Virus record (IMG/VR): IMGVR_UViG_3300034159_000041
Coordinates: 1-64,000 of that record
DNA length: 64,000 nucleotides
Origin: a virus
Strand: one strand, 5' to 3'
In this document: piece after piece, positions 28,661-60,000 of the stretch
Numbering within the stretch: position 1 is the first letter of the stretch
Layout of the letters: every line of letters starts with the position of its first letter
The notes under the pieces: model-generated
The model's database searches: none
Told to the model about the DNA's origin: nothing
Seen by the model: the letters and a program-made list of their open reading frames with translations, nothing else
Translations under genes and position numbers: made by a program

Positions 28661-29262
28661 GCGGCGGCCTCCTGCGGGGTCGGGTTGGTCGCTGGCACCT
28701 CAATGGCGAGGTGACGGCAGGAGGCCACGAAGCGCGCCTCCATCGCGGGGGTCCAGGTGGTGTTGCTGACATTGCGCGGGGAGCGGGTCACGCTCGCGGC
28801 GGTTGGGTCTTTGCCGGACAACTGGTCGTGCAGGGCGGCCAGGTGACGCAGACCGACCGCCTTGCGATCCCCCCAGGTACTGCGCTCCAGGAGCCCCGCC
28901 TTGTCGCGCTCGGCCCGCTCGGCATACGCGCGCTGCTCGGGGGTGCTGCCGCCCTCGCACGCTGAGCGGAACTCGGCGATGCTCGGGGGCCAGGCCATCG
29001 TCGTGCGACAGCGGTCAATCCCGGTCTTGATCTGCTCCCCGGTCAGCCCCGCGATCCCCTCCGCCCACTCGCCCGCCAGTACCCGGTACTGGATGCCGTC
29101 AATCGACTCGGCCCACTTCGCCCCCCAGATCGCGTGAAACTTGAGCAAGAGCGCTGCGACCCACTTACTCGGCACCGTTGCGACAGGCTCGCTCGAACTC
29201 CTCGTAGAGCTTGCTCCCAACCCGTGCAGTGCGGTCGCCGCGTGATTCGTGATGTGATCCAT
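28657..29262 (-). CDS. Replication protein P-like helicase loader
   Basis: 201 residues from ATG 29262 with GGAGG 7-8 nt upstream; its 5' end overlaps the DUF1376 gene by about 98 bp. The core WVAALLLKFHAIWGAKW, EWAEGIAGLTGEQIKTGIDRC and MAWPPSIAEF matches phage lambda P-like replication proteins that bring host DnaB to the initiator. Paired with the DUF1376 initiator as O/P pairs usually are. Confidence 0.8.
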   Translation of the reverse strand: MDHITNHAATALHGLGASSTRSSSEPVATVPSKWVAALLLKFHAIWGAKWAESIDGIQYRVLAGEWAEGIAGLTGEQIKTGIDRCRTTMAWPPSIAEFRSACEGGSTPEQRAYAERAERDKAGLLERSTWGDRKAVGLRHLAALHDQLSGKDPTAASVTRSPRNVSNTTWTPAMEARFVASCRHLAIEVPATNPTPQEAAA

Positions 29263-30310
29263 TGCCGTTGCCTCCGGGGGCGGGTTGATTGAGTGGGAAC
29301 AGACCAGCCCATCCCGAGCGGACGGACTTCTCAACGATGGCGACCTGATCCTGCGGCGGCTGTCCTGACAGGACTTTGGCGTTGAGTCGCATCGTGTCAG
29401 GGGTCCAATCCCTGGGCTTGACGCTGCCGCGGTGCCGGTCGAACAGGCTCCAGGCGTCCGGGTCCACGTCGGCGGGCAGCACGAAGGGGTCTTGCTGTCG
29501 CTTCCCGCGACGTGGGCGCGCATCGGCAGGCGGGTCCGCAACGGGGGGCTTAGGGGGTTCTCCCCCTTCTGCATGGCTGTGGATCTGGATGGCAGGCGTT
29601 AAGCAGGCATCCAAGCAGGCATCAGACGCCTGGTTAAGCAGGCGTTCAAGCAGGCGTTTTTTCCAGCCATCAGGGCGCAAGTCTTTAGTATTCGGACCTT
29701 TACTTGAATTACACTTACTGCATAGTGGCTGAATGTTGTCTATTCCATCACTACCACCTAGGAATATGGGTAATATGTGATCTTTGACCAGAAAAATGCC
29801 TCCCAGGCGTTCAACGCCCGGCGTTCCGCACATCACGCAGCGCGCCCCGCAGATATCGACCAGCGTCACCCACTCGACCGCCGTGTGCGTGCCCTTCTTG
29901 CGCGCCTCGCTCAACCGCTGGGAGCGCGTCGGGCGCAGGTCTTTCTCCTGCGCTTCGCCGCCCCACTTGCCGGCCGCGCCCTTGATGCCACGGTCGATCT
30001 TTGCGGTTTGCGCCGTCTCTGCCCATTCCATCTCGCGTTCCGCGCGAAAGTGCCTGAACAGCAGGCCATGCTCAGGGTCATCAAACGGCTTGAAATACTC
30101 GTGCAGGACGGTCTTGATCGCCGCCTGCTCACTCGCACTCATCGCGTGACAGATTCGATAAACCTTTTCCATGTCCCCCGGCAACGGCCGCCCGTGCTGA
30201 TAGACGAACTCCAGCAGCCGCATGTACGCACCGAGTTGCATCAGGTCCAGATGTGACGTGTCAGCGATCCAGTCGGACCAGAAAAACCTGACGTAAGGGG
30301 TCTTTTTCAT
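29165..30310 (-). CDS. DUF1376 replication protein with embedded HNH nuclease domain
   Basis: 381 residues. Residues 5-95 are a DUF1376 domain (YVRFFWSDWIADTSHLDLMQ, GAYMRLLEFVYQHG), a lambda O-like N-terminal part. Residues 145-205 form an HNH domain: CVMC (158-161), KDHILPIFLGGSDGI with H178, and PLCSKCNSSKG (C197, C200). Residues about 290-345 (RDWTPDTMRLNAKVLSG) resume replication-protein helices. The HNH lies where a linker is expected. Either a functional nicking initiator or a domesticated homing insertion. Confidence 0.8.
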   Translation of the reverse strand: MKKTPYVRFFWSDWIADTSHLDLMQLGAYMRLLEFVYQHGRPLPGDMEKVYRICHAMSASEQAAIKTVLHEYFKPFDDPEHGLLFRHFRAEREMEWAETAQTAKIDRGIKGAAGKWGGEAQEKDLRPTRSQRLSEARKKGTHTAVEWVTLVDICGARCVMCGTPGVERLGGIFLVKDHILPIFLGGSDGIDNIQPLCSKCNSSKGPNTKDLRPDGWKKRLLERLLNQASDACLDACLTPAIQIHSHAEGGEPPKPPVADPPADARPRRGKRQQDPFVLPADVDPDAWSLFDRHRGSVKPRDWTPDTMRLNAKVLSGQPPQDQVAIVEKSVRSGWAGLFPLNQPAPGGNGNGSHHESRGDRTARVGSKLYEEFERACRNGAE

Positions 30311-31126: not shown

Positions 31127-31351
31127 TCAGCCATTGGCGCCATCCTCGAAGAAATTGAAAACAGCAACGCACGGCTCGCACTGATCGAAAGTCCCGAACC
31201 CATGCCGGCAAAATCCATATCCCGGTTCTAATCTTTCTCCGCAGGTAGGGCAAAGGCCATCTTCTGCCTTTTTCACGGGTTCGTCGGTCCGCTTTCCAGC
31301 AATGTGACCGATGGCGCTGATCGAATCCTGACTAATGCTTATCGGCATCAT
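31127..31351 (-). CDS. Small zinc-ribbon protein
   Basis: 74 residues from ATG 31351 (second ATG 31348), GAGGGCAGG directly upstream. LCPTCGERLEPGYGFCRHG and QCEPC form a four-plus-cysteine zinc ribbon. Lies just downstream of iscB. Unknown function. Confidence 0.65.
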   Translation of the reverse strand: MMPISISQDSISAIGHIAGKRTDEPVKKAEDGLCPTCGERLEPGYGFCRHGFGTFDQCEPCVAVFNFFEDGANG

Positions 31352-31496
31352 CCTGCCCTCATAATTGGAAAAACGCCCGGCGCGGGAGTTTCCCCCCGGC
31401 CGGGGAATACCACCGAGAGGAAAGGATGTCAGGCGATCCCAGCCCGCAGTTGCGTAGCCTTGCGGAGCACGATGGCGAAAACTCAGCGGGGCCATC
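31352..31496 (-). other. Non-coding spacer with hairpins downstream of iscB
   Basis: About 145 bp, no gene. Two structures are visible on the transcribed strand: CCGCA/TGCGG flanking a 12-base loop near 31440-31462, and a CCCCGGCCGGGG palindrome followed by a CCCG-CGC-CGGG stem and T run near 31370-31405, which could terminate transcription or be the right end of the IscB element. Confidence 0.4.
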
Positions 31497-32822
31497 TCAA
31501 TTCGTCGTCGCCGTTGAGATTCGAGCGGCCTGTCCGTAGGCATAGCCGTCGCCTCGCTGAACCAGCGTGAAGCGACTCCACGGGGCCGAGATATTGGCCC
31601 CCTCCCTGGTCTTGATGTCGAGTTTCCCGGTCGCGCGAATACCGGTCAGGCGCCCGGTATGCGCCCCTGCATACTTGCCGCGCGGCTGGTCGAGCGTCAC
31701 CAGGTCGCCGGTTTGGAAACCCTGGACGCGCTTGACCCGGCCAGCCCCGCCGCGGGGAAAGCCGAAGCGGTCGGACGTGACCACTTGGCGCTGCCCGCGC
31801 CCGGTCGCCGTGATGGTCAACGCGCTGGCCTGCGGATCGAGATTAACGTGTGCGCCGTCTTCACCGACGCAGGCGGCGTCGATCCAATGGTCTTTCGGAT
31901 AGTCCTGGTTGGTACGGTTGAACTTGGTGCGCCCGCCCGACCAGAACGACACCGGGAGACCGACCTCCTTCAAGGCGTCGCCAATGGCGTAGCGGGTCGC
32001 GTTGACCGCCGCGGCATCCTTGAGCGGGGCCTTGAGCCGCGCCTTGACCTTCGCCAGCACCGCGGGCCGGTCAGCCAGGAACACCTCAACCGACTGCGCG
32101 CCCTTGCGCTGGTTGCACGGCACGCAAGCCGCGACCAGGTTGCTCGGGCGATTCGATCCGCCGCGGGCGCGCGGAACGACGTGCTCGATCTCCAGCGGCA
32201 CCCCCTTGGCAGCGCAGTAGGCGCACTGGTGGCCGTCGCGGGTCAGCACGTACTGCCGGACCTCGACCCCGGCCAGCGTACCCTGTTGGTAGCCGACGCC
32301 TTCGATGCTGGGGTCCTGCATGAGTTGCATGTCGAAGCGCACCAACTCGACCGCCGCCGACGTGATGGGGGCGCGCGACAGCAGGCGGTCGTACCAGGTG
32401 CGCACGTTATCGACGCGCGAGCGCAAGGACGGCGGCAACCAACCCGCGGGACGGGTGCGGTTGTCAAAGCGCGGTGCCCGATAGCGGGTCTTGCGCCCGC
32501 GCCGCCCGCAGCGAATCACTCGCCGGTCGGTGAGGCGCTGGCGCACGGCCTCGCCGCGATGCTCCAAGTTGGCCGCCCACAGCGCCACGCGGCCCTGCTG
32601 CGGGAACTCCCCGACCAAGGCCAGGCCGGTCGTCTTGCTGCCCGGATCGACGTTGAATGCGACTGGCTGCACGTCGCCGTCGTCGCGGTCAAGCAAGATG
32701 ATCGTGAACGGTTGCGTGCGGTAGACCGCCGCCCGCCCGGCTTGCAGCAAACGCCGAGCGCGGGCGGGCCGGCACGGCATCAGCGGTTTCTTGGTGGAAC
32801 TGAGGACAAACACTGTATTCAT
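31497..32822 (-). CDS. iscB: RNA-guided nuclease IscB
   Basis: 441 residues, complete. Residues 11-16 KKPLMP are the PLMP domain that names the family. RuvC-I is FNVDPGSKTTGLAL with D59; an Arg-rich bridge helix spans 104-122; RuvC-II is AAVELVRFD with E159; an HNH domain (C200-x-x-C203, H214, N228, C233-x-x-C236) is inserted; RuvC-III is KDHWIDAAC with H312 and D315. The C-terminal PLMP-distal beta part (about 345-425) should bind target-adjacent DNA. All catalytic residues are present, so it should cut DNA guided by the omega RNA directly upstream. Confidence 0.93.
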   Translation of the reverse strand: MNTVFVLSSTKKPLMPCRPARARRLLQAGRAAVYRTQPFTIILLDRDDGDVQPVAFNVDPGSKTTGLALVGEFPQQGRVALWAANLEHRGEAVRQRLTDRRVIRCGRRGRKTRYRAPRFDNRTRPAGWLPPSLRSRVDNVRTWYDRLLSRAPITSAAVELVRFDMQLMQDPSIEGVGYQQGTLAGVEVRQYVLTRDGHQCAYCAAKGVPLEIEHVVPRARGGSNRPSNLVAACVPCNQRKGAQSVEVFLADRPAVLAKVKARLKAPLKDAAAVNATRYAIGDALKEVGLPVSFWSGGRTKFNRTNQDYPKDHWIDAACVGEDGAHVNLDPQASALTITATGRGQRQVVTSDRFGFPRGGAGRVKRVQGFQTGDLVTLDQPRGKYAGAHTGRLTGIRATGKLDIKTREGANISAPWSRFTLVQRGDGYAYGQAARISTATTN

Positions 32823-33083
32823 CGGTTGCTCTTGTTGGTTTACACCACGCCCGAAGGCGTAACGGTCTCCTCGCCCAGATATCCGACGGTTTTCAGTAAA
32901 CGCACTGCCGTAGGTCGCGCCCGTGCTGTTTAACGTCTACCCGCAGCGCATGAAACTGGAGAAGCATTTCATGGTGCCTATCTATTCGTCGGTATCGACT
33001 GCCCCGAAGGGCGGGCTGGTTGAATCTCATGATCCCGCTTCCCCGTCACGACGACGGGGGAGCGGCATCAAGGCGACGACTCA
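32823..33083 (-). ncRNA. HEARO / omega RNA for IscB
   Basis: The 260 bp directly upstream of iscB, read leftward, carry the conserved order of the HEARO RNA: a 12-bp stem CGCTCCCCCGTC / GACGGGGAAGCG (33064-33036), then GGGATCATGAGATTCAACC, CAGCCCGCCCTTCGGGGC, a long middle, CCTACGGCAG, TGGGCGAGGAGACC and ACGCCTTCGGGCGT just before the start. No protein is coded. The guide should be the roughly 16 nt before the first stem (about 33080-33065: GTCGTCGCCTTGATGC). Confidence 0.85.
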
Positions 33084-33084
33084 A

Positions 33085-33396
33085 CTACGCCGCTGGCGTA
33101 TTGGCTGAAACAGCGTCAGCCAGCGCCTGGGTCTGTGATCCAAGGCGCTCGGAGAGGTCGGCGAGGGCATCGGGGTCGGAGCTTGCGATGGCGTCGTCAA
33201 GCTGTTGCTTCAGGCCCTGCAGCAGCGTGATCGCAGAGCCGGTCACGGTGGCGTTGGCTTCGACTTGTTCGGTGAGGGCGGTCAATTGGTCGGACATTTG
33301 GGTCAGTCTCTGGTTGATGGATGAAAGGACCTGATCAATCGCCGTGAGGCTTTCGAGCAGGCGGTTAGGAAGCAAGAAGAAGTCGAGCAGGCTCAA
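33085..33396 (-). CDS. Coiled-coil phage protein (UUG start)
   Basis: 103 residues from TTG 33396 (TTGA overlap). An N-terminal LSLLDFFLLPNRLLES segment precedes 80 residues of heptad helix (QVLSSINQRLTQMSDQL, LTEQVEANATV). Its 3' end touches the omega RNA guide region, so the IscB element sits immediately after this gene. No family recognised. Confidence 0.65.
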   Translation of the reverse strand: MSLLDFFLLPNRLLESLTAIDQVLSSINQRLTQMSDQLTALTEQVEANATVTGSAITLLQGLKQQLDDAIASSDPDALADLSERLGSQTQALADAVSANTPAA

Positions 33397-45038: not shown

Positions 45039-48000
45039 CTAACCCCCGAACGCCGCGGCGGCCTCCTGGCGCAGTTCCGGAGACAGCGCCTTCAGGAACC
45101 GCTCGCTGTTGGTTAACTTCAACGCGCGGATGCGCGCCCGCAACTGCGCCGGTTTCCACTCAATCGGCGTGTCCGGGTTGGTGCGGTTCCAGTCGGCGAT
45201 GTCGCGCTGTGCCTTGGCGACCCCGGCCTGATCCCGCTTAACCGCGGCCTGCGCCATGTTGCCCATGTAGGTCTGCTCCATCTTCTTGCGCAGGCTGTCG
45301 CGCTCCAAGATGCTGTATTTCTGCTCATTGAACTGCGCGACGCGGGTCGGGTTGAACCCCAAGAACTTGAACGCCGCCTCGGTGCGCGACACCGGGATCA
45401 GCGGGGTGCCGAAGCGATCCACCGCATCCCCGCTCACCATGGCCGTGGTGCCGTCAACAAAGCCCTTGAGCGCCCGCGGCAAGAGGGCATAGCCGGCCCG
45501 GTCCCACTGCCCGCGCGCCGCCTGCTCGACGGCGGTCCCCACATCCTTGACCACGCCCGCAGTTGGCCCCCACAACTCCGAGACCTCGCGCGTGCTGCCC
45601 AGGCTGGAGGGCTTGAGGATCCCGGTCGCGGGGATCAGGTTGCCCATGCCGACGCGACTGGCGATGTCAAACGGCAGTCCGGCCCGGCTGATCCCGTTCA
45701 CCACCACCGGGCCGATGGCCTCGCCCAGCAGTTTCTCGGCCCAGGTGTTGAGTTCCTGGCGGGTCTGCCAGTTCTTCCCCCACCACTGCATGATGGTGTC
45801 AATCAGGTCCTCGGCGTCTTCTTCCCCAGGCAGGCCCCCGAGACCGGCCCCGACCACCAGGGCGGCAAGCATCAGCGCCCGCTGCTTGGTCGGGACGCGC
45901 GAGAGCAATTCCATGTACTGCACGGAGAACATGCGAAACGTGAAAAGAGGAGCGCCGATCCCGCGCGCCCACGGCGGCCGGTTTTCCTTGCGCATCACAA
46001 ACTGCGTGCTGTTGACGCCATCCTCGGCGTACTTGAATGCGGCCTCACCTTTCAGCCCGTTGCCTTCTGCCTGGCGGTAGGCCGCGACGAACGTCACCTG
46101 TCGGTTCACTTGCTCGGCCAAACTGAAGAACGACCCCCACACCGTCATGGCAAACTGCGCGTTCGGGCTCGACATGATCCGGCCGCCCCCCAGGGTGCCG
46201 CCGCGGGCGGTGGCCATCAGGTTGTAGACCCCCTGCGGTGCGATCAGCCCCTCAAGTTCAGCGCGGGCGTAGGCGTCCCCGAGCGCGGTCCCGGTGGCCG
46301 GTGGACCCTTGAACACCTGCGCATAGGCGTCCTTGAGTAGCTGCGTCACGTTGCCCGGCTGCTGGGTCATCCAGGGGGCGGTGACCATCGGGACTTGCGA
46401 AAGGTTGGTCACGGCCGATGCCACGGACGCGCCGAGATACCACGCAAACAGGAACTGGCGCAAGCCGGCGAACTCTTCGTTCGGGTCGGCGAGGTAATCC
46501 CGTAAGTTGATCGCGTAGGTCCGCAAGTCGCCGTTTTCCTGCTTGATCGCGTCGATGGCGTACCCCACGTCGCCCGCGTTCAAGTTGTTGCTGGAGAGCC
46601 GGGCGTTGCTGACGATGTAGGAGGCCAGCACGCGCTGCGCCTCGGTCGAGTACCCGGCGATGCCTTCGCGGTGCAGCAGACTTTTCAGCGCGCTGGACTC
46701 GGCCGCCGCCAACCGGATGTACTCTTGCATCAGGTCGGCGAGGTTCTTGCCGTCGTCGGTGCTGGTGTCCATGTGGTCGGCGAACAAGCTCAGGGTGTCC
46801 ATGTTCAAGCCGCGGAAGAGTTTGTAGCCTTCCTCGGACGTGATCCCATGCACCACCTCCTGCCCGGCCCCCTTGGCCTCACTCATGGCCTTGTAGGCGG
46901 CCATCTGTTCGGCCTCGCTCGCGTACTTGGCGAAGTAGATCACCGCGCGCTCGTTGGTGTCGGGGTCGGTCTGCCAGACGGTCACCGCCCACTTGCCGAA
47001 GCGCTTCAGCGGGAAGTAGCCCTCGGCCTTGAGCTTTTCTACCTTCTCGGCAATGCCATCGATAGACGCCTGAGTGGAGTCGATCTTGTTGCGCAGCGTC
47101 GTGGCCTGCTCGAACCCAAGTTCCGCCGCCTCCAGGTTCTTACGCGATTGGTGCAGGCCAGACTGCGCGTCGTCCTGCGCCTCCTGCGCCCGCTGGAGCG
47201 CCGCGTAGGCGGATGGGTAGTCAGCCTTGCCGGCCGCATCCAGCGCCTGCTGTGCGGCGCGGGTCGCCTTCTTGGCGGCATCCAGCGCCTGTTCGTCGGC
47301 GTCGCGCTCCGCGGTCATCGTCTTGACCATGTTCTGCGCGGTCACGACCGCCTCGGCCACGTCTTCCCGGATCGCGGAGAGCACTTGCTCGGCATTGCCG
47401 GCCGCCGCGGTGACGTGCTCATCCATGATCTGCCGCGCCAGCCGCCCGGAGAGGGCGTGGCGCTCACGCTTGGGTAGGTCCGCGTGCAGCACCTCCAGCA
47501 GCGAGCGCATGGCCCCGACCTGGAAGGTCTGCGCCGACGTATCGAGCGACTGGTGCGTGGCCTTGAGCGCCTGGTTATAGCTTTCGATCTGCCGGTCGGA
47601 GCGACCGCGCGCCTTGAGTTCTGCGACGCTCCAGCGGTGCTTGTTGAGGGTGCCTTCGTTCAGGTCGGTCTGCACCCCGTGCAACTCGCGCGGGCTCATG
47701 GCGGAGCGCACCTGTTTTGCCGACGCCCACGCCGCGCCCATGCCCTTCTCCATCTGGGTGAACCAGTGCGGGGCCAGCGATTCGGCCTGCATGGCAAAGG
47801 TGGAGTTGTCATCAGACTGCCGGGTCAGCCCGTCGTAGACCGGCTTGAACTGCGGTTCGCGAATAGAGAGGTTGCGCGGTGTGCCCACGGACTTATCCCA
47901 CGCGCGGACCTTGGCGGAGGTCTGGCGGCCGGGGATGCCCGCGCCGTAGGGCATGAACCGATCGAGCACGTCGGCGATGCGCGACGCCAGGGTGCGGGTT

Positions 48001-51000
48001 GCCCCCGGAGCCACCCCCGCCCCGCCGATGGCGAAGCGGATGTCGGGGTCGGCGGATTCGTCCAACCGTCCGGAATCTCCGGATGGTTCGGCCTGCCCGC
48101 GGCCGGTGGCGAGGCGGGCGTTGGCGTCGCGCGTGCCCGTCCCCATCCCAAAGCGCCCCCGCAACTGCGCCCGTACCCGGTCATCCCCGGTGCGGTTGTA
48201 TTGAGCCACCCCGGCGACGATCTCGCGCAGGTCGGCATTGTTGAGGTGGATCACGAGCCCGAGCTTGCGCAAGAAAGCGCGGATCGCGTTGTAGACCCGC
48301 AGCAGGAATGGCTGGTCCTTGCCGTGGTTGACCTCGGCCAGATGGGCCAGGAACTCGTCAGCGGCCTCGCGGCGCTGGGCGAGGCTTTCCATGGACAAAC
48401 CGCGCGCATCCGCGTAAAGCTGGACATCAGCGTTGCGGTCCTTGATCAACTCATCTAAGAATGGGTTCAGGGTTGGCCCGAAAACAGACCGCGCGCCGGA
48501 ATGCCACCCCTCATGCGCAAGGACCGTGACCATCGCGTCGCGCACGTCCGCCACATTGTCAGCGACCACCCAAAGCACGCCCTTGGTCGGGTTGCCCTCT
48601 GCGTCTTTCGGCCCAGCCAGGAACACGGCTTTCCCGCGGGCGGTCGGATCAACACTGCGCGCCCGCGCCAGCCCCTCCAGCGTCGCGGCCGGTAGATCCC
48701 CCTCCGTCTGCACCACCCGCAGCGTCGCGGCCCCAGACAGCCCGCGGAGCTTGCCAAACAGCGGTTGCAACTTCGCATCAAGGAAAGCCCGCGTGAGCCG
48801 GGGGAGCGCGGCCGATCGCGGGCGGGTTTGGGTTGCGCGGCCGAGCGTGCCGCCGATGGACCAGCGGGGTTCAGGGGCATCACCTCTCTGTGCCGCGTCA
48901 CTGCGCGCCCGCTGAGCCTTAGCCGTCGCACCCAGCCCCTCCAGCACCTGTTCACCAATCCCGGTCGGCCGGTTCATCCGTTCCCACAGGCTCAGCGCCT
49001 GCCAGTCGTCCGCCGCCGCCCGCCGCACCGTGGCCCCGTGCGCCTTCAACTGCGCCAGGTCCTCGATGTTGATCCACCGCGGGGCCTGGGGCGGTTTGTT
49101 TTCCCACTCCACCACCCACACCCCGGCCGGTAGCGCATCGGCCGCCGCCACGTTCGCTCCAGACGGCGCCACAAACGGATGCTCGGTGTACTTGCGCTCG
49201 CCGTTGGCGTCGCGTAGATCCAGGTACGACACCCGCCGCGCCCGCTCGCCATCGAGCACATGCACGAAATACCCGTCATCGGCCCATTGGTGCCCCTCGA
49301 CCACTACCTCCTTGGTCTGCGGTCCTCGACTCTGTATAGGCTTCGTCGTTACACTTGCCCCCCCGGTGCCGGCGCCGGCCATTCCCCCGTGATCTGGTGT
49401 CTCGGGGTTTAGTTGAAGAACGTAGGCCAGCGTATCGACCGGCGCCCCATGACGCAGCCAGGCCGGCGCCGGCACCGGGTTGCGCGCCATGTCGGCTTCG
49501 ATCTCATCCAAGCGGGTTTGCTTGCGCTCCAGGTCCTTGGCGCGGGCGAACGGTTGATCGGCCAGTTCCTCCAGCTTGGGACGGTCGGCTCGCAGGGTCG
49601 CGGCCTCGGCGCGGACTTGCCGCCCCGTGCCCCGTAGCCCGCGCAAGGTGTCGGCGACGGCGCCATAGACCCCGTAATGCACGACCGAATCAGTGAGCGA
49701 CACCAGTTGCAGATAGACGTTTTCTTTGCCGACATGGCGCCCTTCCAACGGGAACCCAAAGACCTCGCCGACCGGATGCCAGCCGCTTTTTACCGGCATC
49801 CGCTGATACAGCGTCTGGAACGCCTCGCCGAACGCATCCCGCGTGGTGAAGTGATCATTCAACAACCGCGCATCAAACGGCTTCGTCGTCGGCTCTTTCG
49901 GTCGCTCGCGCCCCTCGGCCTCGGCCGCTTTCACCGCCGCCTGCACCCGCTTCGCCAGTTCGCGATCGGGCTGCTTGTTGCCCCAGCCATCGGCTCGCAC
50001 CGCCGCCCGCTCAGCCGCGGTCAGGTTCAGGTCCAGCCCATCGACATAGACCGCGACCTCTTCGCGGTAGGCATCCTGCTGCCGCTCCCCGGCCGCCGCC
50101 TCGGCTTGCTCGAACAGGTCGGCATCCGCGTCATAGCGCTTGGCCTGCGCCTCTTTCTCCGGCACCAGGCGCTCATTGCGGGCCAACTTCTCACGCGCCT
50201 CCACCACCCCCTGCGCGTGGGTGCGCTCGCGCCGCTGGAGCTTCTGCACATCCACCGTCAACTTCTGCCGCTGCAACAGCCGCGGATCGCCCACCGCCTC
50301 GCTCAGCGTCTCGGCATAGCCGCCGCCCTCATCGTCGCTGACCGCATCGCCCTCAATGACCCTGGTGTCTGCATCCGCGTGCAGGAACGCCTTGATGAAC
50401 CGATCCTTCACCGCGAGCACCTGCCAGCGCTTGCCGTCGATGCGCTCGGTGATGTAGCGATACTCCAGCACCGTGTTCCAGGTGTTGCCCTGACGCCAGC
50501 CGCGCCCGTTGCGCTGTTCCAACTCGCCCGGCATCCATGGGGCGTCCAAGTGGTGCATGGCACGCAGCCGTTGCTGCATGTTCACGCCGGTGCCCAGGGT
50601 CTCGGTCTGCCCGATCACGATGCGCACCGTCCCGGCGTTGACCGCATCGGCCACCGCCTTTTTCTGCTCGGGCGTCACCCCGCCCGCGACGATTGCGATC
50701 TCGTGCGCCGGCACGCCCTCGGCCAGCAGCTTGGTACGCAGTTCTTTGGCGAGGTTATGTCCCGGAACCTTCACCTTAGCGACCGTGCGCGTGTCGGAAT
50801 AGCCCTTGTCCATGAACACCACCTGAGCGGCCTGGGGCTCGCCGCGGTAGTGATGCAGGAGGTTACGGACCGCGCGGTTCACCTTGCTCTCGGGATGCTC
50901 CGGCAGGCTCAGGTCCTCCATGCGCGCATCCATCCCCGCCCGCGCCGCCGCGCCCTCAATCATGATCGGCGAGTGCGGATCGCCGGTCTTCATCCAGTCC

Positions 51001-54000
51001 AGCCGCTGTTTGCCACCCGCTGACCGCCACTCGGCCGCGAGTTGCTGGAGCCGCGCGAGGATCGCCGCTTGCTCCGGGCTCATCTCCGCCACGTCCATGA
51101 CCACCCGCTTGTACGGTCGCCCGACCGGGTTCTCCTGCCGCCCGTTCTGCAAGGCGTCGATCTCGTCGGCCGTCAGGTCGGCATCGGCCAGCGTCTTACC
51201 GCTCGCCGTCTTGCGCGGCGTGAACTCCGGCATCTCGTCGGCGAACACCACATCCATGTACGGACTCATCATCCGCCGCAGCTCGGCCACGTTGATGAAC
51301 CCGGCCAGCTTGGTGACCGGCTGATAATCCCCGGCCGCCGTAAACTCCACATCCGACACGCCGCTCGCAAAGGTATTGAACCAGCTATCCCACTGGTCAA
51401 TGCCGTCGCGCGCCATGTCCTGCTGCATGACATAGCGCTGCATGTGGAAGATTTCGGCCAGGGTGTTGGTGATCGGCGTGCCGGTGAACAAATGCACCCC
51501 ACGCCCGGCGTGCTGCCCCTTGATGTAGTCGGTGAGGAACTTCAGGGCCACCGAGCGATTGCTGATCTGCTTTTGCAGCCCGCGCATTTTCATGCGCGTC
51601 GCCATCGGGGGCTTTTTGAAAAGATGGGCCTCATCGACAATCAGCATGTCAACGCCCAAGTCCTCAAACGCAATCGCATCCTCCCGGCTCGACTGCTGCG
51701 CCTGCTTCTCGATCTGCGCCTTGATGCGCAGCCGCGCCTGCGCCAGTTCCTTGGCTGTCGGGTTGCGTAGCTTCTTGATGGCGTCCTCATCGTCCAGCAT
51801 GTCCTTATGCACCGCCCGCCCGAATCCCGCCTGGTTTGCGTCGCCCTCGTCCATCGCCTCCCAGAAAGCCGACTCCAGGGCCGCGATATCCTCGGCCGCC
51901 AAGGCGCTCAGCGTCTCCTTTTTCAGCGTCAGCCGGTCCAGCAGGCTATGCGGCATCACCACCGCATCCCAGTCGTCGTTGCGGATTTGCGCCATGGTTT
52001 CCTTCACGCGCGAGGAATCCAGGTTGTTGACGTACAACACCTTAGCCCCTGGATACATCTCCTGAATCTCCGCCGCAACGCTGGCACTGTTGGCGTTGTG
52101 GGCCAGGATCAACGGCTTTTGCGCCAACCCGAACCGCCGCGACTCGACTGAGATACCGCCAATGGTGTAGGTCTTGCCCGTCCCGACCTCATGGGCATAC
52201 AACCCCGACCCTTGCACCAACCCCCGCCAGATCGCGTTGCTTTGGTGTGACCGCAGGTCAAACTCGTTATCCCCGCGCTGGAGCGCCATCCCATCAAACG
52301 CCAGGAAGGACCCGTCGAACTGCGGATCGGCAATCGCGTTCATCACCTCGTTGTAGTCGCGCTCCAGGGCCACCTTGCGCTCGGGTGACTTCCACACCCA
52401 TTCCTCGAACGCCTCGCGGATCGCCCCGGCCCGTTCGTTGGCCGCGGCACTGAACGCCTCGCGGGTGTAGGTGTTGCCCTCTGAATCCTTCGCGGTAAAC
52501 TTCATGGTCCCGTTGTTGAAAGCCGCTTCCAGCAACTGCCGCAAGCGCACCGTCCCGCTATCGCGCTCGCGCAACACGGGCTTGCCCTCGCCATCCAGCA
52601 GAGGAACGTCTTTTCCGGTTGCCGCGTCCTTGGTTGTGACTTCCTCAAACGCCTTGACCTCGCTCCACCGCAACGCCGTTGGCGTGTCCTGATGGGCATC
52701 GCTGGGCTTCACCACCCACCGATTGATCCGCCACTCCAGTTCCAGGTTTTCCGCAACGTCGGCATTCCCAATGATCACCTCAGCCACGAAGTCGCGGTAA
52801 TGCTTGGCGCCCACCCACTGCGCCCCCAGCTTGGCCTCGATGTTGAAGTACGGCACATCCTTGGGGATCACCTTCTCCAGATGTTCGATGTTGCGGGCCA
52901 TCTCCTCGCCCTGCTCCGCCGCCGCTTGTGCCTCGCGTAGCTTGCGCCGCACGTTGCCGCCCAGGTAGACATCAGAGGGTTCATAGCCGCCGCCCGGCAG
53001 CCGATAGACCGCGCCCGCCGTCACCAGGTCCTGTTCGGCCTGCTCCACCGGCACCCCGGCCGCCGTGGCAATCCGCGCCATGTCGATGTGCAGCCCCTGG
53101 TTGCGTTCCACCACATAGGCATCGCGCACCGTGGGCCTGTCGATCTTCGCCGACGTGCGCACCACCGAGCGGTGCAGGATCGGCATCGGCTCGATGACGC
53201 CATCGCGCACCCGCTCCAGGGCCATCAGCGACGGGTAGAAGGGGTCCTCGGCCTTGTCGAGTAGGCGGATACCCTCGGACTCCCGCACCGGACCGTGCGC
53301 GTCGCGGAACGCCTCGTACTGCTCGCGCAGGGTCTTGCGCAACGCCTCGGTGTCGGGCGCCCCGTCGCGCTCTGCGTCGATCAGCCGTCCGTAGGCCTTG
53401 CGCAACCCCACCAGCCCGCGCAGTTGCGCGTCGCGCTTGGCGGTCTTCTTGGCGTCCTTCACCTGCCACGGCACCACGTCGTGCAGGTTCACCAGCCGCT
53501 CGCCCTGCGTCTGGTAGAGGTCACCATCCGCACCGATCACCACGGCGCGCGAGCGCTCCGTGGTGTTGTTGGTGATGTAGCGGATGTGTTTCGCGTTGTT
53601 CGCCGGGGTATAGGTCCCCGTCGTCATCTCATCGGCCATCGCCGCCAGACGCTCAGGGAAGTCGTCCCCGCGCTCAACGATCACCCCGGCCCGTCCGTAG
53701 GTCGTGCCGCTGCCCCATCCCAGTTCACCCAGGATGTTGTCGCGGTTGAGCAGGTAATACCGATTGATCGCCGCCTTCTGCCCGTCCGCCCCGAGGTCCA
53801 GGTCCTCGGTCTGCGTCCACGCTGATGATTGCGGGTCAGTGTTTTCCGTCTCGCGCTTTTTCAGGATGATCAGGTCGGTCACCACCGCGGTACCGGCATA
53901 TTCCTTGAACGCCCCAGACGGCAGCCGATAGGCCGCCACCAGATCGGCCTTGCGCGCCAGCGCCTGGCGCACCGCGTTGCCCTTGCCGTCCAGGCTGTAG

Positions 54001-57000
54001 CGGCTGGTGATGCCAACGACCAAGCCGCCGGCCCGCACCTGATCCAGCGCTTTCAGGAAAAAGTAGTCATGCAGCGAGGGCGACAGTTTGTTGTAGCGTC
54101 GATCAGCCGGCCCGGTGCTGGCGAACGGCCAGTTGCCGATCACCAGATCGTAGAACCCGTCCGGGGTCTGCGACTCCTGATAGGGCTTGTTGCTGATCGT
54201 CGCGTTTGGGTAGAGGTGCTTGAGAATGCCCGACGAGAGTTCGTCAAGCTCAATGCCGGTCAGTTGGCTGGCGTCCTGGACTGCCTTCGGCATCATCGCA
54301 AAGAAGTTGCCGACCCCCGCCGCAGGTTCGAGCACCCGTCCGCCCTGGAAGCCCAATCGCTGCACCGCCGCCCAGATCGCTTGTACGGTCGGCGGGTCGG
54401 TGTAGTGGGCATTGATGATACTGGCCTGCGCCGCCTTCCATTCGGACTCGCCCAGGTGCCCGCGCAGCCAATCATCCTCGTTGCGCCAGCCCTCGCGCTC
54501 GACGGTGCGCTCCCAGGTCCCCTGGAACAGTTCCTGCCCGAAACTCCCCCACCCGGTATAGCCGGCCAGGATGTCGCGCTCGTCCGCCGTCGCGTTCCGC
54601 CCGGCCTCTTCGAGTTCCCGATAGACTTCGATCGCCCGCCGATTCTTGTTGAACCGGACCTTCGGCGTTCCGCCGTAGATGCGTTCGGGTTCATCCGCGT
54701 GGAAGTTCTCCGCGCGGGCCGCCAGGTCTAGGGTCGTGCTTGGTTCGTCTGGGGTGACCGGCTCGACAGTGCCGCCTGCGCCCGTCTGATCTTCTGCGCC
54801 TGCACCCGCACCGACAGCGGCACCCGCGCCCGTGCCGCCATCTCCAGCAGCGGCGTTAGGTCCCCGTCCGGGTCGCTTGGATCCTCGGGGCCTTCCGGGT
54901 CCACGATCAACCAGTCCTTGTTCGCTTCCTCCCGACTGTCCGGCCAGCCCATCCCCGCTTTCTGGTTCGCCTCGCTCGCCGCGAACCGGCGGCTCTCGAT
55001 CAGGTGCGCGAACTCCGCCAAAATCCCCGCCTGTTCCAATCGTGCCACCATCCGCGGGCGAATCTGCCGCCACAGGGCGATCATCTCCCGTTCCTTCTGG
55101 CCCCCGATCGGCCAATCCGTCTCGGCGATCCGGGCGCTCTCCTGCTTGATCTGGCGTATCAGTTGGCGGTCCATTGGTCGGTTCCGGTTGTGGTTCTGCT
55201 GTCAGTGTAGCCGGTTGCTGCGTGAATATCCGTGCCAACTCCGCTTTTACCGTCTGCGGATCATCCATCCCGTCAATACTAATCCCCGCATCCTCCATCA
55301 TGTCCCGCGCGCCGTTGTACCACGAGCGCAGATAGGGGCGCAGTTTTGGCAACGGCTCGCCCAGGTCCTCGGCAATGCGCTTGGCGAACGCGGCAAACGA
55401 ACGCGCCCCCGCTTCCAAATGGAACGCGGCCAATTCCGCGCCGATGGCGAGAATCTCCGGGTCGATGCCGGCGTTGAGTTGTGACAGCTTGGCCTTGAGT
55501 CGCTTGCGCAGTTCTGCGGCGCGGTCGGCCGTGACCAGGGTGTTGCTGGCACCGTAGGCGGGGGCTGGCTGGGGTTGCTCGGGGGGCTGCGCTGGGGCGG
55601 CCTCGGCCGGCGTCTTGGCGGCCGGCGTCTTGGCGGTCGGCGGTTCAGGCGTGGCCGGGGTCGCGGCTGCCGCAGGCTCGGGAGCGGCCGGCGTGGCACC
55701 ATCGGGGCCAGCGTCAGGTTGCGCGCTCACCTTCTTGGCAACCTGCCACGTTGCGCCGACCTGACGTTGTGCAGCAACGATCCGCGCCAAGGCAACCGAC
55801 GTGCCGGAGCCGGTCGCGCTCACGAAATGCAGTTCCGCATCACCGTAGCCGCGCGCCGTCACCGACTCCAGCACATACGGCTTATCCGGGGATAGGTAAT
55901 CCATCTGCCCGGACGCAAAGTCCGAGAAGGTCACCGTATCCCCTGGTGCCGCGCCCATCACCGAAGCGACCTTCTGCTGCGCCGCGCGTTGCTTGTTGGG
56001 TAGTTTTGGCTTTTGCGCCTTGGCACCCGCCGCGGCGCCCTCGGGGGCTGGGGTCGGAGCGGAGTTCGCAAAGTCAATCAGGTCTTGCGGAATCTCGCCG
56101 TACTTTGCGCCGATGTAGGTAGAACTGACCAACTGGCCCTGATGGAATCGATCAAACCCATGTTCTGCAATCCACTTTAAGTGCTGCTGTCCTTCCGATA
56201 TCTGCGGCTGATACTCGGTCGTCAGCGCCTCGTTTGACTCTCCTGCGTCTCGGCGCTCCCGGCCCTGACGGCGCAGATCAGCCAAACGCGCACGAACCTT
56301 TGTTTCCAGGTCGTTCAGTTCAATCTCTCGCGCAGAAGGCGGGACCGGCTTGCGTCGCTCGGCTTCGTCTCTGGCTTTCTGTTCTTCGCGCGCCTTTTTC
56401 TGGTCTTCCCTGCGCTGATCGGCCTCTTGCTGTTGGCGCTCGACCAACTTCGCGTGCGACTGCGACGCCCGAGCATCACGCAAGGCGGAGTATCCCGACG
56501 CAAGCTCATGACGAAGTTGAGCGATCTGTGGTTGTACGCGGGCGGCTGCGGCGCGACGCTCGTCAATGGCCCCTACCGTCTGGAAATGCCCCTGATCGTC
56601 GGTGATGAATCTCCCATCTTCCGCGTCGTATCCGGTCACATTGGCGACGCCTTCCAGAAGACGAGCGGCCTCCTTGATATGACGATTGCGCAAGTCGTTC
56701 AGTGGTGCGGTATCTGGCAATCTCCCAGCAGCGACGTCGGAAGAGAACGCTTTTAGCCAGTCGTCATACGATCTTGCTGCAACCGTCAAGGATTCCTTGT
56801 CAGTTGGGGCGGGCGTTGTCGGCTCCGGCGTCAATTCCTTGACGGTCGGCGTCGGCTGGGTGACAACCGGCGTCTCGACAGTAGTTGCCCCTGCCGCATC
56901 ACGCGCCGCCTTGCCTTCCTTCCAGCCTTGGCGCCGCGGAACTAAAGAGGCCGCTGGCTCAGGCTTACCGGCCAGGCCGTCAGCGTAGCCGGCGTCGCGG

Positions 57001-60000
57001 GCGGCTTGGGCTTTGGGGGAGAGCGCGGGCGTCGGCTTTGTGCCGGTCGTTGGCGGCTCCGGCGCGGTAACCTCATCGCTCAGATCGACAACAGCAAACT
57101 TTGACGGTCGAATTGAGTTGGTCGCCTTCGCGTTGAGGTGGCTGTCGCGCTCGGAGTCGTCAGCGACCTTCTGGGCGTGGTCACGATCCTGCAAGACCGC
57201 ATCCTTTCCCGTGATCCCATCCTTTAGGAACCGTCCGGTTCTCAGGTTTCTGACCTTGAACCCGGTTGGCATGGGGGCCGGTGTGCCGCCGCCCTTCGCC
57301 GCTGGTGTCTCTCCTTGGTCCGCTGCCGGCGCAATCCGCTGGTCCTGCACCTGCCACCCAATGACGCCCGTCTCTTGGTCAACATAGCGCGACACCACGC
57401 CAAGATTCACCAGGTGACGCATCATGCGCTGCTTGTCCGCAGTGTCTTCCGGATGCGGCAACGCGCGCTCAAGCGGGTTCCGCGGGTCAAAGAATCGCGT
57501 GTTCCACTCGCGCGCCTGGTCAACCAGTCGCCGCTGCTTCTCATTCAAGGCCACCGGCCGCGCTTTCTGTTCGGCGTCCTTATCCAGCCGCGCGGACGCT
57601 TCCCGGTCCTCAAGAACCTTGATCCACGGCCCTGGTCTGGCGCGAACAGATCGCTCTAGGTCGTCAACCGACTCAGTTCTGAACTCGGCCAATCGCCCAG
57701 CCAACTCCCGAGCCGTGAGCGACTTTGCGCCAACCTGATACCGTCTGCCGTTTTCTTCCTTCGTTGGTTCCTTGCCTTGGTCCGCTGCCGGCGTGTCAGG
57801 CGCTCCCGGCGCTGCTCCGGTGTCTCGGGGGGGCTTAACCTCGGGGGTCGGCGTGGGGCTCGGGGGCGGGCTGCTGGGGGCATTGGGGTCCTCAGTGGGG
57901 GTCGGCTGAGTCGGAGCCGGCTCGTTGATGTTCGTCCACCAGTCATCCAACCGCTTGCGCACCGCAGGGTCTGCAATCGGGGAACCTGGCGGAACCTTCG
58001 GGTCATAGCCTTTACCCGTCTGCTTCGTCCCCGCACCTGGTAGCACCGCGCCGACGTTGGAGCCATAGAGCGCACCGGCCGCTCGTGCTTCGTCCTGGCC
58101 TTGCAGGGTGAGGGGTCCGGGCGCCGTGGTCAGGCCGGCGTTGGGGTCCATGCCTCCCAGCCCGGACGGACCACCTTGCGGACCACTGGGACCGGGTGTC
58201 CGTCCAGCGCCTTCAGTTGGATATCCAAGATCGTCAACCCCGGACCCTGGTCGAAGGGCACCGGGTTGGACGGCCGCCCCATCAGCGCCGCGAACCGCAG
58301 CGACTCCGACGTTTGTTCCGCTCGCCGCCCCAGGTGCCGGACCAGCCGGAGGTACAGGACGCGCGCCCCCGCCCACCGCTTGGCCTGCTGGCGGGCCTGC
58401 TTGTCCCGCGCCCGCTGCTTGTTGGACTGCGTTCTGGCTGACATTGGGTGGTCCTGCAGTTTGTGCTGCGCGGGTTAGGGGGCCGGTCTTCGGTCGGTTG
58501 GCAAGCGCCGCCGCGGTCGCCGCTGCAACCCGCTGCAGGTCCTGCGGGTCGGTCTCTGCTGCGGTTGCATCGACCGCGGCTTGCTTAGCCTGCGCGTCGG
58601 TCAGCGTCGGGTTGGCGACCGCGGCACGCGCCGCCACTTCACGATAGGCGGCGTCCTGGTCGATAGCGACCGGGAGGTTTGCGGCCACCGATGCGCTGGC
58701 GTAGGCGCGGAAGATGCGCGCGAGTTCCGGGTCTTCCTGCTGGACGGATCGCGCAACGGTATCCACCACCGCCTGCCGCTCTTGCGGGGTTCCTGCCGCG
58801 GGGTCGGTCAGTAGCCGGTTGGCCTCGCTGCGCCGGTACGCGCCGAACGCATGAGCGCCGCCAGCACCAAACGCCGTCATCACCAGCGTCGGGACCACGA
58901 CGCGCTTGGCATCGTCCCATGTTGGCATCGCCCCGGCACCGTACAGCGACTCGACGCCCTGCTCGCCGGCCTGTTGGCCCATCTCCGTTGCGATTTCAGC
59001 CGGCGCCACCTGAAACGCGATGTCTTTTGCCGCCCGCAGAATGGCTCCTTGGTTGGTCGCCGCGCGCTGCACCACGTCGGCGCTCGCATCCGCACCGGCC
59101 ATGCCCAGACGTTTGGCGATGGCGCTGGTCACCCCGAGCTTCAGGCTTGGGGGAATGAGCGCGCCAGCCTTGGCCAGCAACAGCGTACTGACCACTTCTC
59201 CAGCGCCTTCGATGCTGGCGTTGATCAAGCCGGCATGCATCCCGGCCTCGTGGGCATCCTCGGGAGAGAGTCCGGCCTTGATGTTGGCGTCCGTGACCTT
59301 GCGATAGGTTTCCTCGCCCTGCTGCCCGGACATCCCAAGAATCCCCAGCACCCCGCCGATGGCCGCGCCGCCGATCGCGCCGACCGCTGCACCTGGACCC
59401 GTCCAGGCGGTCAGGCCGGCGCCAATCGCCGCCCCCGTCGCCGCGGGTCCGAGCGACGGCACCAGGCTTTCCCCGGCTTCGGCGAGACTACCCCACGGAT
59501 GCTCTTGCGCTTGGCTGGTCAAGGACTCTTTCATCCAGTCCGGGGCCGCCTCGGCACGCGCCGTCTTCTCGGCGTCCAGCCGCGCCAACTCGTCGGCCGT
59601 GGCGGGCGGGGCCAGTCCCAGGGCGCGGCCGAAGAACTGCCCTGACTCTTGAACCGTTTCCGGAAGGTTGCGGACACCTCTGGCAACGCTGCGCCCCAGT
59701 TCCTTGACACCACCAACAAAGCCCTCGTTGGCGTGCAGTTCGTTGAGTCGCGCCAGATGCTGCGGAGCGGTTTCGTTGGGAAGGATACCGGGTTGCGTCA
59801 GGTCGGGTTTCTGCGCGAGCGGCGGCAGCGGGGGCGGAACCGGAGGCGACCCGACGACGTTGAGTTGTTCGACCGGCTCCAGCGAGGCCAGGGCCGCGTC
59901 GCGCCAGGAAGGGGCCTTGCTCGAGGCGGGCTGCTCCAGCGACGCGAGGGCCGCGTCACGCCACGATGGGGGGGGCGGCAAGGGCTTGAGGACCGGCGCA

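What the first reader, a model, noticed from the sequence alone, without database searches (positions are those of the whole stretch)
31497..33083. Complete IscB with HEARO/omega RNA embedded in a phage early operon
All RuvC (D59, E159, H312, D315) and HNH (H214, N228, zinc cysteines) residues are present, and the RNA directly upstream has the conserved HEARO order including a near-perfect 12-bp first stem. IscB systems are usually carried by IS200/IS605-type bacterial transposons; here it sits inside a coupled phage operon, between two phage genes, with no transposase. It may act as phage-borne guided homing or interference.
Basis: partly seen in the sequence, partly recalled or inferred. Interest (0 to 1): 0.88.

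Follow-up and report, generated by a model that had tools for sequence, protein, structure and literature searches.

The report
Phage-borne IscB element with misread guide
A phage carries an intact IscB RNA-guided DNA-cutting enzyme with its guide RNA as a compact 1.7-kb insertion just behind a widespread small phage gene, and its guide (not the one first proposed) matches the end of that gene, as expected of an element that cuts copies of its own site that lack it.

Summary
In detail: 31497-32822(-) encodes an intact 441-aa IscB (NCBIfam guided_IscB, E 1.7e-127; all RuvC, HNH and zinc residues kept), preceded by a HEARO/omega RNA. That RNA scores 76.7 bits, under Rfam's cut-off of 83, because Rfam's alignment drops the 5' arm of helix P1. 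The arm is GUUGAGUC (33085-33078), pairs perfectly with GAUUCAAC and covaries in 11 relatives. The real guide is ATACGCCAGCGGCGTA (33101-33086), the last 16 nt (through the TA of the stop) of the upstream gene. That gene belongs to a large phage family ending in ANTPAA*; two uninterrupted homologues in other viral contigs hold the identical 16-mer. Right ends of relatives place the element at about 31415-33085 (1,671 bp; relatives 1,652-1,707), and joining the flanks restores a stop codon. Lack of transposase is normal for IscB. The clade mixes bacterial and viral copies; two viral ones carry CRISPR-like mini-arrays. Best reading: a non-autonomous IscB element whose guide records its insertion site, working as retention or homing element. 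Cleavage is untested.

The parts
31497..32822 (-). iscB, 441 aa: PLMP, RuvC-I/bridge (RRXRR), RuvC-II, HNH, RuvC-III, C-terminal region
32859..33085 (-). omega (HEARO) RNA; P1 5' arm GUUGAGUC 33085-33078 pairs with GAUUCAAC directly before CCAG
33086..33101 (-). Predicted guide ATACGCCAGCGGCGTA = last 16 nt of the upstream gene through the TA of its stop codon; it contains an inverted repeat TACGCC-AGC-GGCGTA
   Evidence: position just 5' of P1, as in relatives whose P1 could be placed; only match in the window within 2 mismatches
33085..33297 (-). Host gene flanked at its 3' end: 70-aa phage protein ending ...AVSANTPAA*; the G of TAG is the first base of the RNA
31415..33085 (-). Inferred whole element, 1,671 bp (right end uncertain by about 3 nt)
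   Evidence: left end = RNA start; right end by alignment to right ends of bacterial copies of the same clade, which are 1,652-1,707 bp long
31411..31414 (-). Right flank GGTG: candidate target-adjacent motif; fits R-N-N-G seen at the other sites of the clade mapped with the shared right-end motif
   Evidence: small sample
31373..31405 (-). Strong hairpin (-25.4 kcal/mol) followed by CGTTTTT: terminator-like, probably native to the phage, just outside the element
   Evidence: not flagged by the simple scan
31127..31351 (-). Next phage gene downstream (74 aa, CxxC zinc-ribbon-like, MMPISISQ...); right flank of the insertion
   Evidence: no relative found

Best explanation
This is a non-autonomous IscB (OMEGA) mobile element in a phage genome. 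It consists of the omega RNA, iscB and a short right end, about 1,671 bp, and sits exactly at the stop codon of a small phage gene. Transcription from the upstream gene reads the last 16 nt of that gene into the 5' end of the omega RNA, so the guide records the insertion site. IscB with this RNA should cut double-stranded DNA in which the 16-mer is followed by the native right flank (an uninterrupted copy of the site) and spare its own locus, where the RNA scaffold has displaced that flank. The cut is repaired from the element-bearing copy, so the element is kept and spreads among co-infecting or newly replicated phage genomes. Shown by sequence: intact nuclease, structured and covarying RNA, guide position, element ends in relatives, and uninterrupted homologous target genes in other phages. 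Inferred: expression, loading, cleavage, target-adjacent motif and copying by recombination.
For: Intact protein. RNA with P1 conserved by compensatory change. In relatives P1 begins GTC/GTT and the bases before it differ from copy to copy, so the variable 16 nt, not the scaffold, is the guide. Same-clade bacterial copies have the same build, 1,652-1,707 bp, at unrelated sites, and the region after the window's iscB aligns to their right ends in one register (L447 z 4.3). Joining the window's flanks at 31415 gives GCGGCGTA|GGTGG, which restores TAG; in L020 the same treatment restores a reading frame ending in a natural ATGA stop/start overlap. The upstream gene belongs to a phage family whose C-terminus ANTPAA* is conserved (34 family-like members in a truncated scan), and two uninterrupted members, L294 and L297, carry the identical 16-mer at the same place. 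TnpB elements of the same kind use a site-recording guide for retention and gene drive (PMC11870625).
Against: No empty allele of this very site was found: the downstream gene has no relative in the collections searched. The two exact targets L294 and L297 are followed by GATT and ATAA, not R-N-N-G, so they may not be cleavable. Their 16/16 identity may reflect a conserved protein end plus codon chance. L440 (Chromatium okenii) does not align to the window's right end. No transposase is present to move the element by itself, and no promoter was recognised near it.
Confidence: 0.7

Rival explanations
1. Recent passenger: an ordinary bacterial IscB insertion that landed in a phage genome through a transposase supplied in trans. 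Its guide serves only donor-site retention, and it does nothing for the phage.
For: The nearest relatives include multi-copy bacterial elements in Chromatiaceae and Competibacteraceae; two of the bacterial relatives' genomes have clear Y1 transposases and a third has weaker matches; the element is intact at both ends.
Against: The window's IscB is at most about 65% identical to any relative found, so there is no sign of a very recent transfer from a sampled host; the reading frame stays intact; other viral members of the clade exist (L002, L004, L100).
Confidence: 0.2
2. Phage weapon: IscB with its guide attacks competitor phages that carry the uninterrupted ANTPAA gene, excluding them rather than copying the element.
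For: The target gene family is widespread in phages and the target end is conserved, with 0-5 mismatches to the guide across members ending in ANTPAA*. Sister viral IscBs carry CRISPR-like arrays, which fits use against several targets.
Against: Most family members differ at 3 or more of 16 positions and lack the inferred flanking motif; a single guide equal to the insertion site is what any IscB element has by default.
Confidence: 0.1

Closest known systems
IscB / OMEGA systems (OgeuIscB and relatives; NCBIfam NF040563)
   Same: Protein architecture, catalytic residues, omega RNA directly upstream, guide at the RNA's 5' end
   Different: Host is a phage; the sequence is at most about 65% identical to relatives found; cleavage untested
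HEARO RNA (Rfam RF02033)
   Same: Full-length match over the model, same order of helices, conserved CCAG and GGCGAGGAGAC motifs
   Different: First stem is extended and diverged in this clade, so the score is under Rfam's cut-off (76.7 against 83)
TnpB elements of IS200/IS605 acting as gene drive or retention system (PMC11870625)
   Same: RNA-guided nuclease whose guide records the insertion site and cuts the empty site
   Different: IscB instead of TnpB, guide at the 5' instead of the 3' end, no TnpA in the element, phage instead of plasmid
Phage homing endonucleases (free-standing HNH type)
   Same: HNH nuclease gene sitting at the edge of a conserved phage gene without destroying it
   Different: Specificity comes from an RNA guide, not from the protein
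CRISPR-associated IscB
   Same: Two of the nearest viral relatives (L002, L004) are of this kind
   Different: The window has a single guide and no array

Membership tests
IscB | RuvC split by bridge region and HNH, with all catalytic residues | tested here: met
IscB | N-terminal PLMP region and RRXRR motif | tested here: met
   KPLMP at the N-terminus; RRXRR Pfam E 9e-67
IscB | RNA-guided cleavage of double-stranded DNA next to a target-adjacent motif | not testable with these tools
   needs biochemistry
HEARO / omega RNA | Covariance-model match to RF02033 at Rfam's gathering score | tested here: not met
   76.7 bits against 83; E 8.6e-16 and full-length, and the deficit lies in the 5' stem that Rfam's alignment drops; some relatives also score under the cut-off
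HEARO / omega RNA | P1 helix supported by covariation, lying directly 5' of IscB | tested here: met
IS200/IS605-type IscB element | Defined left and right ends shared with other copies | tested here: met
   left end exact; right end by alignment, uncertain by about 3 nt
IS200/IS605-type IscB element | TnpA (Y1) transposase in the element or genome | tested here: not met
   none in the 66.6-kb record, which may be incomplete; absence is common (PMC9755519)
IS200/IS605-type IscB element | Empty site identified | tested here: inconclusive
   uninterrupted homologues of the upstream gene exist but none shares the downstream flank
CRISPR-associated IscB | Repeat-spacer array feeding the omega RNA | tested here: not met
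   no repeats upstream in the window
Homing endonuclease element | Biased inheritance into element-free alleles | not testable with these tools
   needs mixed-infection experiment

The most novel reading that the evidence does not exclude
Phages use IscB as an RNA-programmed homing system: the element has settled at the end of a gene family common in phages, so its guide can address homologous sites in other phages, and in sister viruses the same clade of IscB has grown a small CRISPR-like array at the RNA's 5' end, giving several guides.
Probability: 0.3. Interest if true: 0.65.

Novelty: new member of a known kind. Interest (0 to 1): 0.47.

Why it matters
It gives a concrete, testable case of an RNA-guided nuclease acting as a selfish or homing element in a phage, with a named guide, target gene and predicted motif. 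It also corrects how to read the guide in this IscB clade, where Rfam's alignment misplaces the 5' end. The array-bearing viral relatives bear on how single-guide IscB could pass to multi-guide systems such as Cas9.

Tried and rejected
Right end placed before ATGA at 31362: first favoured because ATGA or ATGG follows the right end in Rhabdochromatium, Vreelandella, Ectothiorhodospira and Ktedonobacter copies, then dropped because the window's own clade has another right end and an R-N-N-G flank, to which the window aligns at about 31417. Search for an empty allele through the downstream gene: nothing. Search for the upstream gene in named phage records: nothing at E 0.01. DNA similarity of the whole neighbourhood to named phages: only fragments. 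Spacers of the array-bearing relatives L002 and L004 against named phages: no match. The 60 stretches with an exact 16-mer match in IMG/VR are mostly unrelated genes; only L294 and L297 are homologous sites.

Full report
What is there. The ORF at 31497-32822 on the minus strand encodes a 441-aa IscB. NCBIfam's guided_IscB model scores 424.9 bits against a cut-off of 175, Pfam finds RRXRR and HNH, and solved IscB proteins are the leading PDB matches. In an alignment with five relatives of 50-64% identity, the RuvC residues D59, E159, H312, D315 and the HNH/zinc residues C200, C203, H214, N228, C233, C236 are all invariant. The record is a phage: portal, terminase, major head and head-closure proteins lie on it. 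It carries one IscB and no Y1 transposase.

The RNA. Rfam's HEARO model matches 32859-33063 with 76.7 bits and E 8.6e-16 in a 501-base search. That is under the curators' 83, so a standard scan misses it. The printed alignment shows why: the 5' arm of the first helix is dropped. Folding 33085-32859 gives a perfect 8-bp P1, GUUGAGUC with GAUUCAAC, directly before the conserved CCAG. Only one place within the 120 nt searched pairs 8 of 8, and shuffled sequence does so in about 1% of trials. In 11 relatives P1 is 100% paired, with seven cells changed on both sides, and none of 500 shuffles reaches that.

The guide. In relatives the RNA begins with GTC or GTT of P1, and the bases before it differ from copy to copy, as guides should. 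It is scaffold. The guide is ATACGCCAGCGGCGTA, 33101-33086.

The target gene. Those 16 nt are the end of a 70-aa gene, 33085-33297. The first base of the RNA supplies the G of its TAG stop. Two members from other viral contigs, L294 and L297, contain the identical 16-mer with no insertion. Others differ at 1-5 positions. Because the amino acids are conserved, exact DNA identity in two members may owe something to chance; my estimate, not a computed figure, is that about one such case could be expected.

The ends. Several bacterial genomes hold copies of the same clade. Their right ends share a short hairpin and a CTCGCTYC-like end, the elements are 1,652-1,707 bp long, and the base pattern after the end is R-N-N-G at the sites mapped with this motif. 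The region after the window's iscB aligns to these right ends in one register in most comparisons, ending at about 31417, with z up to 4.3; several of the single comparisons are weak and L440 does not align there. This places the right end at 31415 or 31414 and the element at about 1,671 bp. Rejoining the flanks gives GCGGCGTA|GGTGG, which restores the stop codon TAG. The strong terminator-like hairpin at 31373-31405 is then native phage sequence. A first idea that the end lies before ATGA at 31362, drawn from other IscB groups, was dropped.

Kinship. In a tree of 108 IscBs the window falls in a ten-row clade (SH-aLRT 97) with proteins of Competibacteraceae, Chromatiaceae and a Methylumidiphilus MAG, and with viral contigs L002, L004 and L100 (L003 shares its contig length and IscB content with the Allochromatium contig of L041 and may be a bacterial contig classed as viral). 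IscB occurs in at least about 79 IMG/VR contigs, so phage carriage as such is not rare. Lack of TnpA is normal by published surveys (PMC9755519).

Mechanism. The parts fit a non-autonomous element whose RNA records its insertion site and whose nuclease cuts the uninterrupted site, as shown for TnpB elements in plasmids (PMC11870625). In a phage this amounts to retention and possibly homing. Cleavage, the target-adjacent motif and copying are inferred, not shown. The two exact targets found in other phages lack the inferred R-N-N-G motif, so cross-phage homing to them is not predicted with confidence.

Related observation. L002 and L004, in the window's clade, and L149, elsewhere in the tree, carry CRISPR-like repeats (three to five copies, the outermost degenerate in L004 and L149) whose last copy forms the 5' arm of P1. 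In L002 the array begins inside the end of a terminase-like ORF. CRISPR-associated IscB is known from earlier work (own knowledge; a 2025 paper is listed in the references of PMC12991159), but I found no paper in the library on such systems in phages.

Noticed in passing
L002:5606-5790; L004:1375-1530; L149:5515-5765: CRISPR-like mini-arrays (three to five repeats, spacers of about 30-37 nt) directly in front of viral IscB genes, with the last repeat serving as the 5' arm of the omega RNA's P1. Spacers of L002 and L004 have no match in named phages.
   Followed up: partly
L002:4595-5611: A terminase-large-subunit-like ORF ends inside the first repeat of the array; the array plus iscB may interrupt the terminase gene. 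The contig ends too soon to see whether it resumes.
   Followed up: partly
L100:5640-5745: The omega RNA of a 110-kb phage contig begins just after a tRNA-like sequence, and iscB is followed at once by a sliding-clamp-like gene, without a recognisable right end.
   Followed up: no
window 33085-33297 and members: Large family of small phage proteins with an almost unchanging C-terminus ANTPAA (in some members followed by a tail); function unknown. In the window the DNA encoding it is an inverted repeat, TACGCC-AGC-GGCGTA.
   Followed up: partly
window 45039-60068(-): A 5,009-aa ORF whose C-terminal part matches giant phage proteins, including DarB-like antirestriction.
   Followed up: no
window 29165-30310(-): Primosomal DUF1376 protein with an HNH domain inserted in its middle, residues about 158-205; possibly another homing-type nuclease insertion close to iscB.
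   Followed up: no
L010:5715-6380: Omega RNA with a truncated iscB in a viral contig, followed by a DnaB-like gene: a decaying copy.
   Followed up: no
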